Of a stretch of 64,000 nt of DNA, positions 21,900 to 25,908 are shown one piece after another (position 1 is the first letter of the stretch; the number at the start of each line of letters is the position of its first letter). Location: the NCBI RefSeq assembly GCF_002355515.1, contig NZ_AP014809.1, forward strand, positions 2,566,501 to 2,630,500, read 5' to 3'. Source of the stretch: Methylorubrum populi (GTDB taxonomy: Bacteria; Pseudomonadota; Alphaproteobacteria; Rhizobiales; Beijerinckiaceae). Made by a program: the position numbers and the translations under genes. A model generated the notes under the pieces. That model was not told the DNA's origin and did no database searches. It saw only the letters and a program-made list of their open reading frames with translations.

Positions 21900-22502
21900 A
21901 TGATCGCGCGAACCGTTTCAACCCGACGCGAAGCAAGGCCCGAGCCGCCGGTCACCGCCGCGTGGCTGGAACGGGTGACGACCCATTACCTCGACCGCTA
22001 CGGCGCCTCCTCCGAGATGCTGCGCCGCGTGCTCGTTCGCCGCATCGAGCGCCGCTGCCGCTCCCGCGACGAGGATCCGGGCGCGCATGCCGGGCTGATC
22101 GAGGAAACCGTGACTCGCGCGCAGCGGGCCGGACTGGTCGACGACGCACGCTTCGCCGCCGCTCGGCTGCGGGGCCTGAGACGGCGCGGCACCTCGACCC
22201 GTCAGGCGCAAGCGCGGCTCGCCGCCAAGGGGATCGACGCGGAGACGATCGCAGCGACCCTCGCCGGCGAGCGGGAGGAGGCGGAAGGGGCCGAGGCGGG
22301 CGAGCCCGACACCGAGGAGCGGGCGGCCCGGGCCTATGCCCGCCGCCGCCGCCTCGGCCCCTATCGCCGGCCGGGCACCCGCGAGGCCAACCGCGAGCGC
22401 GACCTTGCCGCCATGGCGCGCGCAGGCTTTTCCTACGCGCTGGCCAAGAACGTGATCGGCGGCGAGGCGGAGGAGGACGGAGTAACCTTCGGGGAAGAGT
22501 GA
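21900..22502 (+). CDS. recX: Regulatory protein RecX
   Basis: A 200-residue, highly charged helical protein of the RecX family, which limits RecA filament activity. It shows the three-repeat organisation typical of RecX: WLERVTTHYLDRYGASSEMLRRVL, a central LVDDARFAAARLRGLRRRGTSTRQAQARLAAKGI, and a third repeat ending in GFSYALAKNVIGG. The gene is divergent from the TAXI gene with 44 bases between starts. It is not next to recA but precedes a group of DNA-repair genes (radical SAM, UdgX). Confidence 0.85.
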   Translation: MIARTVSTRREARPEPPVTAAWLERVTTHYLDRYGASSEMLRRVLVRRIERRCRSRDEDPGAHAGLIEETVTRAQRAGLVDDARFAAARLRGLRRRGTSTRQAQARLAAKGIDAETIAATLAGEREEAEGAEAGEPDTEERAARAYARRRRLGPYRRPGTREANRERDLAAMARAGFSYALAKNVIGGEAEEDGVTFGEE

Positions 22503-22588
22503 GGGCGTCCCCCTCGACATGCCCGCCCACCGCTCCACGTCGGAGGCCATGCGGAGCCTTTCCGCCCAAGACGACGAGGACGACGTAC

Positions 22589-23020
22589 ATGACCGACCGC
22601 CACGCGAGCGCCCATTGGGAAGGCGACGGCAAGACCGGCAAGGGCAAGATCACGACGCAGTCCGGCGTGCTCTCGGACAATCCCTACGGTTTCAACACCC
22701 GCTTCGAGAACGAGCCGGGCACCAACCCGGAGGAGCTGATCGCGGCGGCGCATGCCGGCTGCTTCACCATGGCGCTGGCCTTCCAGCTCCAGTCGGCCGG
22801 CCTCAAGGCGACCTCGCTCGACACCAAGGCCGTCGTCACGCTGGTGCAGGACGGCGACGGCTTCAAGGTTACGAAGTCGGCCCTCACCCTCAAGGCGGTG
22901 ATCCCCGGCATCGATCAAGCGAAGTTCGACGAGCTCGCCGGCAATGCCGAGAAGGGCTGCCCGATCTCGAAGCTGCTCAACGCCGAGATCACCCTCGACA
23001 AGACGCTCGTCCAGGGCTGA
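22589..23020 (+). CDS. OsmC family peroxiredoxin
   Basis: A 143-residue OsmC/Ohr-type thiol peroxidase that reduces hydroperoxides. The two redox cysteines are C58 (AAAHAGCFTMAL) and C124 (EKGCPISKLL), in the classical OsmC contexts, and the N-terminal HWEGDGKTGKGKI is typical of the OsmC subgroup. The ATG at 22589 follows GAGGA at 8 bases. It is followed by an intrinsic terminator, so it is probably monocistronic. Confidence 0.93.
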   Translation: MTDRHASAHWEGDGKTGKGKITTQSGVLSDNPYGFNTRFENEPGTNPEELIAAAHAGCFTMALAFQLQSAGLKATSLDTKAVVTLVQDGDGFKVTKSALTLKAVIPGIDQAKFDELAGNAEKGCPISKLLNAEITLDKTLVQG

Positions 23021-23062: not shown

Positions 23063-23122
23063 CCGGTGCGCGGGCCAACGCGCCGCATTGATCCGCCGAC
23101 CGGTCTGTTCATCTTCCGTTCG

Positions 23123-24334
23123 ATGGACGACAAGCTCGCGCGCAAGCTGCGCATCCTCGCGGATGCCGCCAAATACGACGCCTCCTGCGCCTCCTCCGGT
23201 GCGCCCAAGCGCAAGGCGGGGGCGGACGGGCTCGGCTCGACGACGGGCGCCGGCATCTGCCACGCCTACACGCCGGACGGGCGCTGCGTCTCCCTGCTCA
23301 AGATCCTGCTGACCAATTACTGCCTGTTCGACTGCGCCTATTGCGTGAACCGCCGTTCCTCGAACGTCGCCCGCGCGCGCTTCTCGGTCGAGGAGGTCGT
23401 GACGCTCACGGTCGAGTTCTACAAGCGCAACTATATCGAGGGGCTGTTTCTCTCGTCCGGCATCATCCGCTCGCCCGACTACACGATGGAGATGCTGACC
23501 CGCGTCGCCAAGAAGCTCCGGCGCGATCACGGCTTTCGCGGCTACATCCACCTCAAGTCGATCCCCGAGGCGAGCCCCTGGCTGATCGAGGAGGCGGGGC
23601 TCTACGCCGACCGGCTCTCGATCAACCTCGAACTGCCCACCGAGGCGAGCCTCAACCGTCTCGCGCCGGAGAAGGACGGCGCGGCGATCGAAGGGGCGAT
23701 GGGCCAGATCGGCGAGCGCATCGTCCAGGCCAAGGAGGAGCGCCGCCGCTTCTCGCCCGCCGGGCAATCGACACAGGTCATCGTCGGGGCGGACGCCACC
23801 ACCGACGAGGCGATGATCCGGAAATCCGCGCTGCTCTACGGCACCTACGGGCTCAAGCGCGTCTACTACTCGGCCTTCAGCCCGATCCCCGACGCCTCCT
23901 CGGCCCTGCCGCCGCAGGCGCCGCCGCTCCGGCGCGAGCACCGTCTGTATCAGGCGGACTGGCTGATCCGGTACTACGAGTTCTCCCCCGACGACGTGGC
24001 CGGGGCGGCCGATGACGGAATGCTCGCCCTCGACATCGACCCGAAGCTCGCCTGGGCGCTGAAGAACCGCCACCGCTTCCCCGTGGACGTGAACCGCGCC
24101 GACCGGGAGATGCTGCTGCGGGTGCCGGGGCTCGGGGCGCGGGCGGTCGATGCCATCATCAAGGCCCGCCGCCACGGGCGCCTGCGCCTCGACGACGTGG
24201 CCCGGCTGACCTCGGGGCTGAAGCGCGCCCGGCCGTTCCTGATCGCCGAGGATTTCAGGCCGACGACGCTCACCGACCGGCTGGATCTGCGGGTGAAACT
24301 CGCCGAGCCGGCCGAGCAGTTGAGCCTGTTCTGA
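23123..24334 (+). CDS. Putative DNA modification/repair radical SAM protein
   Basis: A 403-residue radical SAM enzyme of the family annotated as putative DNA modification/repair (spore-photoproduct-lyase relatives). The 4Fe-4S-binding CxxxCxxC is C67-C71-C74 (NYCLFDCAYC). Other signature stretches are GLFLSSGIIRSPDYTMEM and IHLKSIPEAS. The C-terminus carries a helix-hairpin-helix DNA-binding module (about 321-361, VNRADREMLLRVPGLGARAVDAII). The ATG at 23123 is chosen because the family starts MDDKLARKL. Its stop overlaps the next ATG by one base (TGATG), so the two are co-translated; this pairing with a DUF4130-UDG gene recurs in other bacteria. The DNA lesion acted on is unknown. Confidence 0.9.
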   Translation: MDDKLARKLRILADAAKYDASCASSGAPKRKAGADGLGSTTGAGICHAYTPDGRCVSLLKILLTNYCLFDCAYCVNRRSSNVARARFSVEEVVTLTVEFYKRNYIEGLFLSSGIIRSPDYTMEMLTRVAKKLRRDHGFRGYIHLKSIPEASPWLIEEAGLYADRLSINLELPTEASLNRLAPEKDGAAIEGAMGQIGERIVQAKEERRRFSPAGQSTQVIVGADATTDEAMIRKSALLYGTYGLKRVYYSAFSPIPDASSALPPQAPPLRREHRLYQADWLIRYYEFSPDDVAGAADDGMLALDIDPKLAWALKNRHRFPVDVNRADREMLLRVPGLGARAVDAIIKARRHGRLRLDDVARLTSGLKRARPFLIAEDFRPTTLTDRLDLRVKLAEPAEQLSLF

Positions 24335-25908
24335 TGGATGAGGCGCCGCACTCGCTTCTCCCTCCCCCCTCTGCGAGGGAGGGTGGGCCTCGCGTCAGCG
24401 AGGGTCGGGAGAGGCGCGCGCCGGTTCCGGAGAGTTCGGAGCCGGCCCCTCTTCCGCCTGCTCCGCAGGCACCCTCCCCCGCAAAGGGGGGAGGGCATGT
24501 CGGCGGCGGCATCCACGTCGTTCCCCTCGCGCCCGGTGCGGACCTCGCCGGTTTCCGCGCGGCGGCCCGCCGCCTGATCGCGGCGGACGTCGCTCCGGAA
24601 AACATCGTCTGGCAGACCGAGGCCCCGAGCCTGTTCGGCGCCGACAGTGCCACCGCGGACGGTCCGCCGCTCCCGCTCCCCCGCGCGGTGGCCGAACTGA
24701 TCCCGATGGTGGTGCCGCATCGCGATCCCGAGCGCTACGGCCTGCTCTACGCGCTGCTCTGGCGGGTCGCCCACGGCGAGCGGGCCCTGATGGAGATCGC
24801 GAGCGATCCGCTCGTCCATCGTCTCCATCGGATGCGGAAAGCCATCGGCCGCGACCTGCACAAGATGCACGCCTTCCTGCGCTTCCGCCGGTTGCCGGGA
24901 GAGGGACGGGAGCGCTTCGCGGCGTGGTTCGAGCCCGACCATCACATCCTGGAGGCGGCGGCTCCGTTCTTCGTCGATCGCTTCCGCGCGCTGACGTGGT
25001 CGATCCTGACGCCGGAGGGCTCGGCGCACTGGGACGGCGCGCTCACCTTCGGCCCGCCCGGCCGCCGCGAGGACGTGCCGGACGGCGACGGCTTCGAGGC
25101 CGGCTGGCGCGACTATTACGAGAGCACCTTCAACCCGGCCCGGCTCAACCTCGACGCCATGCGCGCCGAGATGCCCCGCAAGTACTGGCGGAACATGCCC
25201 GAGACGGCGGCGATTCCCGCCCTGGTGCGGGCCGCGAGCGCCCGCGCGCAGGCGATGATCGAGAGGGAGCCGACCATGCCGGTGAAGCGCGACCCCGTCC
25301 GCGCCGTCGCGAAGATGCGCCAAGACGAGCCGGATTCGCTCGAGGCCCTGAACGCGATCATCGCCCGCTCCGAGCCGCTGGTGCCCGGCGCGACGCAGGC
25401 CGTGCTCGGCGAGGGGCCGGTCGGTGCGCGGATCGCCTTCGTCGGCGAGCAGCCGGGCGACCAGGAGGACCGCCAGGGCCGGCCCTTCGTCGGGCCGGCG
25501 GGCCAGCTTCTCTCCCGCGCGCTGGAGGAGGCGGGGATCGACCGGCGCGAGGCCTACCTGACCAATGCGGTCAAGCACTTCAAGTTCACGCAACGCGGCA
25601 AGCGCCGCATCCACGAGAAGCCGACGGCGGGTGAGGTCAGCCATTACCGTTGGTGGCTCGACAAGGAACTCGACTTCGTCGCGCCGAAGCTCGTCGTCGC
25701 GCTCGGCGCCACCGCGGTGCTGGCGCTGACGGGCAAGCAGATCCCGATCACCCGCGCCCGCGGCCCCGCCGAGTTCGACCGGCCGTTCGAGGGCTTCATC
25801 ACGGTCCACCCCTCCTACCTGCTGCGCCTGCCCGACGAGGCGGCAAAGGCGGCGGCCTATCAGGCCTTCGTCGAGGATCTGCGGCGGGCGCAGGCCATGG
25901 CGGCGTGA
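24334..25908 (+). CDS. DUF4130-UdgX fusion, uracil-DNA-binding repair protein without cysteines
   Basis: A 524-residue two-domain protein. Residues about 60-300 form the DUF4130 putative DNA-metabolism domain (HKMHAFLRFRRL, WFEPDHHIL, YYESTFNPARLN). Residues about 335-520 form a family-4-like uracil-DNA glycosylase of the UdgX type, with motif A GEQPGDQED (371-379), the R-loop KRRIH (423-427) whose His covalently captures the abasic site in characterised UdgX, and VHPSYLL (491-497). The whole protein has no cysteine, so the four ligands of the usual 4Fe-4S cluster are absent (RSEP and SHYRWW occupy the expected places). Residues about 7-56 are low-complexity and come from a palindromic DNA repeat. 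No alternative in-frame ATG/GTG start precedes the DUF4130 domain. It is co-translated with the radical SAM gene. Confidence 0.9.
   Translation: MDEAPHSLLPPPSAREGGPRVSEGRERRAPVPESSEPAPLPPAPQAPSPAKGGGHVGGGIHVVPLAPGADLAGFRAAARRLIAADVAPENIVWQTEAPSLFGADSATADGPPLPLPRAVAELIPMVVPHRDPERYGLLYALLWRVAHGERALMEIASDPLVHRLHRMRKAIGRDLHKMHAFLRFRRLPGEGRERFAAWFEPDHHILEAAAPFFVDRFRALTWSILTPEGSAHWDGALTFGPPGRREDVPDGDGFEAGWRDYYESTFNPARLNLDAMRAEMPRKYWRNMPETAAIPALVRAASARAQAMIEREPTMPVKRDPVRAVAKMRQDEPDSLEALNAIIARSEPLVPGATQAVLGEGPVGARIAFVGEQPGDQEDRQGRPFVGPAGQLLSRALEEAGIDRREAYLTNAVKHFKFTQRGKRRIHEKPTAGEVSHYRWWLDKELDFVAPKLVVALGATAVLALTGKQIPITRARGPAEFDRPFEGFITVHPSYLLRLPDEAAKAAAYQAFVEDLRRAQAMAA
24353..24498. repeat. Palindromic repeat element lying inside a coding sequence
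   Basis: The stretch begins CTTCTCCCTCCCCCCTCTGC and ends CCCTCCCCCGCAAAGGGGGG, with inverted purine/pyrimidine arms: CCCTCCC.../GAGGGAGGG at the left, GCCTGCTCCGCAGGC and CCTCCCCC.../GGGGGGAGG at the right. This layout matches dispersed intergenic palindromic elements common in Rhizobiales. Here it is in frame and encodes residues about 7-56 of the UdgX fusion. Confidence 0.7.

What the first reader, a model, noticed from the sequence alone, without database searches (positions are those of the whole stretch)
23123..25908. Cysteine-free UdgX fused to DUF4130 and coupled to a radical SAM repair protein
The two genes overlap by one base (TGATG). The second encodes DUF4130 plus a UdgX-type uracil-DNA glycosylase that keeps GEQPGDQED, the KRRIH capture loop with its histidine, and VHPSYLL. 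The entire 524-residue protein contains no cysteine, although characterised family-4 and UdgX enzymes use four cysteines to hold a 4Fe-4S cluster. Meanwhile the partner keeps its radical SAM CxxxCxxC and adds a helix-hairpin-helix. This suggests a two-component repair system where the cluster has moved to the partner and the glycosylase half works without Fe-S. The lesion repaired is unknown, so the pair may be an undescribed pathway.
Basis: partly seen in the sequence, partly recalled or inferred. Interest (0 to 1): 0.75.

Follow-up and report, generated by a model that had tools for sequence, protein, structure and literature searches.

The report
SOS repair pair with iron-free UdgX
Two overlapping bacterial genes form a repair cassette of a kind already predicted to be DNA-damage controlled, but its uracil-capturing enzyme belongs to a branch that lost the cysteines which bind a metal cluster in its characterised relatives, so it probably works without the cluster.

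Summary
In detail: a radical SAM gene (23123-24334) overlaps by one base a 524-residue DUF4130-UdgX fusion with no cysteine and intact UdgX motifs.

The loss is real. Of 58 alphaproteobacterial UdgX domains, 42 read Cys, Cys, His, Cys at the ligand positions and 16 have no cysteine there; the 16 form one clade. A tree without those columns needs three changes and forces two. UdgX has three cysteines plus a histidine there, not four cysteines.

"The cluster moved to the partner" is not supported: the partner's six cysteines are the same beside both UdgX types, and three genomes with stand-alone cysteine-free UdgX lack the partner.

The alphaproteobacterial LexA box precedes the operon in 99 of 107 loci, against 0-5 for other spacings and 2 of 38 stand-alone udgX genes. 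So it is a predicted SOS operon, a cassette already predicted in print (PMC8565304) and covered by NCBIfam models. DUF4130 faintly resembles DHH phosphoesterases, by fold only.

Verdict: new variant of a known kind. Cluster absence, activity and lesion are untested.

The parts
23107..23121 (+). LexA (SOS) box GTTCATCTTCCGTTC, one base before the radical SAM start codon
   Evidence: only exact match in the window, but 1.32 expected by chance, so the window alone proves nothing; present before the operon in 99 of 107 loci versus 0-5 for other spacings; motif given for Alphaproteobacteria in PMC8565304 and PMC3323433 (passages)
23123..24334 (+). radical SAM protein, 403 aa, TIGR03916
   Evidence: 545.8 bits against cut-off 343.5
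23321..23344 (+). CxxxCxxC radical SAM motif, C67 C71 C74
   Evidence: invariant in 36 of 36 aligned proteins; positions
24080..24178 (+). helix-hairpin-helix in the C-terminal part of the radical SAM protein
   Evidence: PF12836 residues 320-352, 24.4 bits, under the cut-off of 27; 24 of 36 members match at E<=0.001
24334..25908 (+). DUF4130-UdgX fusion, 524 aa, no cysteine
24352..24500 (+). interspersed palindromic element translated in frame as most of the N-terminal extension
   Evidence: 55 matches in the own genome, 32 distinct places, DNA fold z -6.2
24730..25203 (+). DUF4130 domain (PF13566), residues 133-290
   Evidence: 128 bits, cut-off 27; separate AF2 model pLDDT 88.6
25213..25887 (+). 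UdgX domain (TIGR03914), residues 294-518
   Evidence: 306 bits, cut-off 189.95; fold match to M. smegmatis UdgX
25369..25380 (+). SEPL, where relatives have Cys-x2-Cys
   Evidence: S in 27 of 29 and a gap in 29 of 29 cysteine-free rows of A1 against C in 22 of 22 cysteine-type rows
25444..25461 (+). motif A GEQPGD
25576..25578 (+). His415, position of the histidine ligand of cysteine-type UdgX, kept
   Evidence: VKHFKF
25600..25614 (+). KRRIH loop with the cross-linking histidine
   Evidence: His invariant in 51 of 51 rows of A1
25645..25647 (+). Tyr438 in place of the third ligand cysteine
   Evidence: Y in 28 of 29 cysteine-free rows, C in 22 of 22 cysteine-type rows of A1
25807..25827 (+). 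motif B HPSYLLR

Best explanation
This is a LexA-controlled (SOS) two-gene DNA repair cassette of the COG4277-COG1573 kind. The radical SAM/HhH protein and DUF4130 form the core that stays together. UdgX is fused to DUF4130 and, by homology, excises uracil (or a related deaminated pyrimidine) and covalently captures the abasic site through the KRRIH histidine. In an ancestor of one alphaproteobacterial clade, UdgX lost its three ligand cysteines; Ser-Glu-Pro-Leu and Tyr now stand at those places. Fold and active site remained, so the enzyme should work without an Fe-S cluster. A comparable loss occurred at least once more. Shown by computation: gene pairing, conserved LexA-type box, clade-wide ligand loss, conserved active-site residues, predicted fold. 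Inferred: absence of a cluster, catalysis and cross-linking in this protein, SOS induction in vivo, and joint action of the two proteins on one lesion.
Against: No wet-lab data. His415 is still kept in nearly all of the clade (H in 119 of 120 close relatives), so some other metal or role is not excluded. A simple pattern for all three catalytic motifs is met by 113 of 120 relatives; 6 miss the loop pattern and 1 motif B, not looked at further. No exact box in the own recA locus. In this window the box ends one base before the annotated ATG, leaving no room for a ribosome site, so the true start may differ. 9 of 108 radical SAM gene matches lack an exact box. The bootstrap of the tree had not settled (its values are rough). 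pTM of the fusion model is 0.59, so domain packing is unknown.
Confidence: 0.7

Rival explanations
1. The Fe-S cluster was transferred to the partner: the radical SAM protein supplies the cluster function to a glycosylase that gave its own up.
For: The partner has a radical SAM motif and three further invariant cysteines, C22, C46, C55, and the genes overlap.
Against: The six cysteines are the same in partners of cysteine-type (22 of 22) and cysteine-free (14 of 14) UdgX, so nothing was gained at the loss. Three of three tested genomes with stand-alone cysteine-free UdgX have no TIGR03916 match.
Confidence: 0.04
2. The cysteine-free UdgX has lost catalysis and serves as a uracil- or abasic-site-binding module for the radical SAM/DUF4130 machine.
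For: Ligand loss on a long stem branch, 0.78 changes per column. Two members, Alsobacter L159 and Pleomorphomonas L163, have also changed the histidine ligand position. 7 of 120 relatives miss a simple pattern of one catalytic motif.
Against: The loop His and motif B His are invariant in the 29 cysteine-free rows of A1, and L159 and L163 still have KRRIH and GEQPGD.
Confidence: 0.15
3. The missing cysteines are a frame, assembly or annotation artefact.
For: None found for the window; one relative (L109) has an in-frame stop in the match.
Against: The same substitutions occur in a clade of independent assemblies and no cysteine precedes GEQPG in 120 of 120 close relatives.
Confidence: 0.01
4. 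A different metal site remains: the kept histidine together with other residues binds zinc or a mononuclear iron.
For: His415 is conserved in nearly all cysteine-free members.
Against: At 80 percent or more, only V, G, L, N, S, Y and F (and a gap) set the cysteine-free rows of A1 apart from the cysteine-type rows, so no classical new ligand was gained except possibly Tyr.
Confidence: 0.08

Closest known systems
UdgX of Mycobacterium smegmatis (TIGR03914; PDB 6ail, 6ajo)
   Same: Fold, GEQPG motif A, KRRIH loop, HPS motif B.
   Different: M. smegmatis UdgX is described as a 4Fe-4S protein (PMC10359453 introduction, passage) and its chain is about 209 residues; the window protein has none of the cysteines and is fused to DUF4130.
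COG1573-COG4277 SOS base excision repair operon (PMC8565304, passages read)
   Same: UDG gene plus COG4277 gene in a two-gene operon with a LexA site. That COG4277 equals the TIGR03916 protein is recalled, not from a call.
   Different: That work treats Bacteroidetes with other LexA motifs; the passages read do not mention DUF4130 or the Fe-S state.
NCBIfam TIGR03914 / TIGR03915 / TIGR03916
   Same: All three models match here over cut-off.
   Different: One UdgX model scores both cysteine-free and cysteine-type domains over its cut-off.
BdiUng and UDG families 1, 2, 3 and 6
   Same: Glycosylases of the superfamily without Fe-S (recalled); BdiUng 5gn2 is hit at E 1.3e-4.
   Different: They are far weaker fold matches than UdgX; the cysteine-free clade lies among UdgX rows, apart from the six family-4 rows.

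Membership tests
UdgX (TIGR03914) | score over the curated cut-off | tested here: met
   306 bits versus 189.95
UdgX (TIGR03914) | motif A GEQPG, KRRIH loop, motif B HPS..LLR | tested here: met
   GEQPGD at 371, KRRIH at 423, HPSYLLR at 492; motifs as given in PMC10359453 except Y for S/A in motif B
UdgX (TIGR03914) | 4Fe-4S cluster ligand positions (three Cys plus a His position) | tested here: not met
   0 of 3 cysteines, His kept. Filed as a cysteine-free variant of UdgX, not as an Fe-S UdgX
UdgX (TIGR03914) | uracil excision with covalent capture of the abasic site | not testable with these tools
   needs biochemistry
Family 4 UDG (TIGR00758) | score over the curated cut-off | tested here: not met
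   107.8 bits versus 125.3; motif A has Q where family 4 has A/G (PMC10359453, passage)
Radical SAM, TIGR03916 subgroup | CxxxCxxC and family score | tested here: met
   545.8 bits versus 343.5; C67, C71, C74 invariant in 36 of 36. The general Pfam model PF04055 is below its cut-off, 26.1 versus 29.5
LexA-controlled COG1573-COG4277 repair operon | two-gene operon with a UDG gene | tested here: met
   overlapping genes; transcription as one unit not tested
LexA-controlled COG1573-COG4277 repair operon | LexA-type site before the operon | tested here: met
   GTTC-N7-GTTC at 23107-23121, present in 99 of 107 loci
LexA-controlled COG1573-COG4277 repair operon | LexA binding and damage induction | not testable with these tools
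   needs experiment
DHH/DHHA1 phosphoesterases (for DUF4130) | fold similarity | tested here: inconclusive
DHH/DHHA1 phosphoesterases (for DUF4130) | sequence-profile relation to RecJ | tested here: not met
   hhalign probability 0.2 percent against 22 RecJ-type proteins; shallow query profile, Neff 2.6

The most novel reading that the evidence does not exclude
UdgX has shed its Fe-S cluster more than once, with tyrosine arriving at the third ligand cysteine in each lineage, while keeping covalent capture. In the SOS cassette DUF4130 would be a degenerate DHH (RecJ/Cdc45-like) single-strand DNA-binding module that delivers this iron-free, oxidant-proof capture enzyme to damaged replication forks, and the radical SAM protein would process or release the captured site.
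Probability: 0.15. Interest if true: 0.75.

Novelty: new variant of a known kind. Interest (0 to 1): 0.5.

Why it matters
Whether the Fe-S cluster of DNA glycosylases is structural or a redox damage sensor has been argued both ways (review PMC9266487, passages). A natural clade in which the cluster ligands vanished while the active-site residues stayed is a ready-made test: compare cysteine-free and cysteine-type UdgX side by side. A cluster-free UdgX could also be a more robust reagent for uracil mapping, where UdgX is already used (PMC10359453, passage). The link of the LexA-type box to the radical SAM-DUF4130 operon, and not to stand-alone udgX, points to the radical SAM-DUF4130 pair as the SOS-specific function to test.

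Tried and rejected
Rejected: cluster transferred to the partner; artefact; a single loss for all cysteine-free UdgX (a Sphingomonas MAG, L207, falls among cysteine-type Sphingomonadaceae rows in the quick tree; the masked tree forces at least two changes). The joining of the Roseomonas-type group (L190, L211, L212) to the main clade has SH-aLRT support 92 only, and the masked tree, which left L211 out, counts three changes, so two or three losses are both open.

Led nowhere: a PDB sequence search with the radical SAM protein gave nothing better than E 0.05. The fold searches with the whole fusion were filled by UDG structures, so DUF4130 was folded alone. Its matches are nearly all DHH/DHHA1-type chains by my reading of the titles (partly recalled), but at a Z that the tool calls common for models without a clear match, and the profile comparison with RecJ found nothing. 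A first DUF4130 labelling by iterated profile drifted into the UDG domain and flagged every row; it was replaced by a single-pass search with a shorter query. L084 is labelled fused on a short frame of 281 residues and may be a marginal hit.

Rows dropped: L109, L111 and L130 (motifs not readable in one frame; L109 is itself cysteine-free); L204; one of 61 above-cut-off places (G243:C4) was not fetched; near-duplicates and long branches were left out of the trees. L101 and L145 are identical, so the sets overlap. Three flanks were cut short by contig ends (L117, L123, L127). Of stand-alone cysteine-free UdgX only the three were checked genome-wide for the partner; the five only in the flank. 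UdgX frames were chosen by the GEQPG motif, which makes motif A conservation in those sets circular. The 108 radical SAM matches lie in 107 loci (L189 twice), some from the same genome (L074 and L094 are one gene); one search also gives the count without near-identical upstreams. The stand-alone control scanned 360 bases around an estimated domain start, not the same 280 bases.

Papers: PMC10359453, PMC10776899, PMC3765255, PMC8307549, PMC9266487, PMC12938805, PMC8565304, PMC3323433 and PMC9380542 were seen as passages only, none in full. Searches for cysteine-free UdgX or a tested radical SAM-UDG pair. No paper describing either was seen in those listings and passages; most subscription papers are not in that library.

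Full report
What is there. The window (close to Methylorubrum; best named relatives Methylorubrum podarium and rhodesianum at 93 percent) has a radical SAM gene at 23123-24334 and, overlapping it by one base in TGATG, a gene for a 524-residue fusion of DUF4130 and UdgX. NCBIfam has models for all three parts, each matched over cut-off: TIGR03916, TIGR03915 and TIGR03914. The fusion has no cysteine.

The cysteine loss is a clade, not an accident. Alphaproteobacterial genomes were searched (150, 289, a few shared). UdgX domains were read from 60 of 61 above-cut-off places plus the window; three rows were unreadable, leaving 58. The four ligand columns read Cys, Cys, His, Cys in 42 of 58 and carry no cysteine in 16 of 58, with nothing between. 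The 16 form one clade, apart from six family-4 rows (100/100; the tool notes that the bootstrap had not settled). A second, named set (best 80 of 564 loci; 79 readable) has 50 cysteine-type and 29 cysteine-free domains; the cysteine-free ones come from records named Methylobacterium, Microvirga, Bosea, Ancylobacter, Azospirillum, Acidocella and others. In a tree without the ligand columns the cysteine-free state needs three changes, at least two of them forced. A Sphingomonas MAG (L207) and a Roseomonas-type group (L190, L211, L212) are the further cases, and they too have tyrosine in place of the third cysteine (sequences printed). All 17 UdgX domains read from other classes of the phylum keep Cys-x2-Cys.

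A correction. UdgX does not have four cysteines at these positions. M. smegmatis UdgX has Cys-x2-Cys, His and Cys there (alignment), and so has every cysteine-type domain. The histidine is still present in nearly all of the cysteine-free main clade (16 of 16; 119 of 120 close relatives), which is unexplained; Alsobacter (L159) has Arg and Pleomorphomonas (L163) has Gln there.

The cluster did not move to the partner. The radical SAM protein has six cysteines, all invariant in 36 of 36 relatives: 22 beside cysteine-type and 14 beside cysteine-free UdgX. Nothing was gained when UdgX lost its ligands. Three genomes with stand-alone cysteine-free UdgX have no TIGR03916 match (G045, G153, G288).

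The core pair is radical SAM plus DUF4130. A radical SAM gene lies in the fetched flank of 35 of 36 DUF4130-fused UdgX genes and 0 of 22 stand-alone ones, and of 61 of 63 and 0 of 16 in the named set.

The operon has a LexA-type box. The alphaproteobacterial LexA motif is GTTC-N7-GTTC (PMC8565304 and PMC3323433, passages). It lies at 23107-23121. Alone in the window this means little (1.32 expected by chance). But it precedes the radical SAM gene in 99 of 107 loci, 91 of 99 after removing near-identical upstreams, while spacings of 2-6 and 8-13 give 0-5 of 107, and random windows of the same loci give 772 of 21,400. Both UdgX types have it: cysteine-free 36 of 37, cysteine-type 54 of 60, unassigned 9 of 11. 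Stand-alone udgX genes have it in 2 of 38. The own lexA gene has a box beside its start; the own recA locus has none that is exact. SOS control of such an operon was already reported for Verrucomicrobia and Alphaproteobacteria according to PMC8565304; the two papers it cites were not held.

Verdict. A predicted SOS repair cassette of a kind already in print, in which UdgX belongs to a cysteine-free branch that I saw described in none of the papers listed in Tried and rejected. New variant of a known kind; cluster absence, activity, lesion and the role of the partner remain to be tested.

Noticed in passing
window 24352-24500: One copy of an imperfectly palindromic interspersed element (55 matches, 32 distinct places in the own genome; DNA fold z -6.2) is translated in frame as most of the N-terminal extension of the fusion; several relatives show similar Pro/Gly-rich extensions.
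   Followed up: partly
L001 and L059, L060, L062, L063, L064: Alphaproteobacterial family-4-like UDGs seem to keep only two of the four ligand cysteines (GC near the N-terminal site and xCxPF; Trp at VxWRPPGN) in 6 of 6 read by eye, so they too may lack a normal 4Fe-4S cluster.
   Followed up: no
window 23186-23344 (radical SAM protein): Three further invariant cysteines, C22, C46 and C55, besides CxxxCxxC suggest an auxiliary cluster or metal site in the radical SAM protein.
   Followed up: partly
L159 and L163: Stand-alone cysteine-free UdgX in Alsobacter and Pleomorphomonas have also changed the histidine ligand position but keep KRRIH.
   Followed up: no
own genome G000, loci L001-L006: Six UDG-superfamily matches, the window fusion (L002) among them; one looks like a family-1 Ung by eye (L004; motif recalled), so UdgX is probably not the only uracil repair route.
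   Followed up: partly
L109 (G132): The UdgX match there carries one in-frame TGA, and the row was unreadable: possible pseudogene or assembly error.
   Followed up: no
window 21900-23020: Upstream frames look by eye like RecX (21900-22502) and an OsmC-type protein ending at 23020; not tested with a family search.
   Followed up: no
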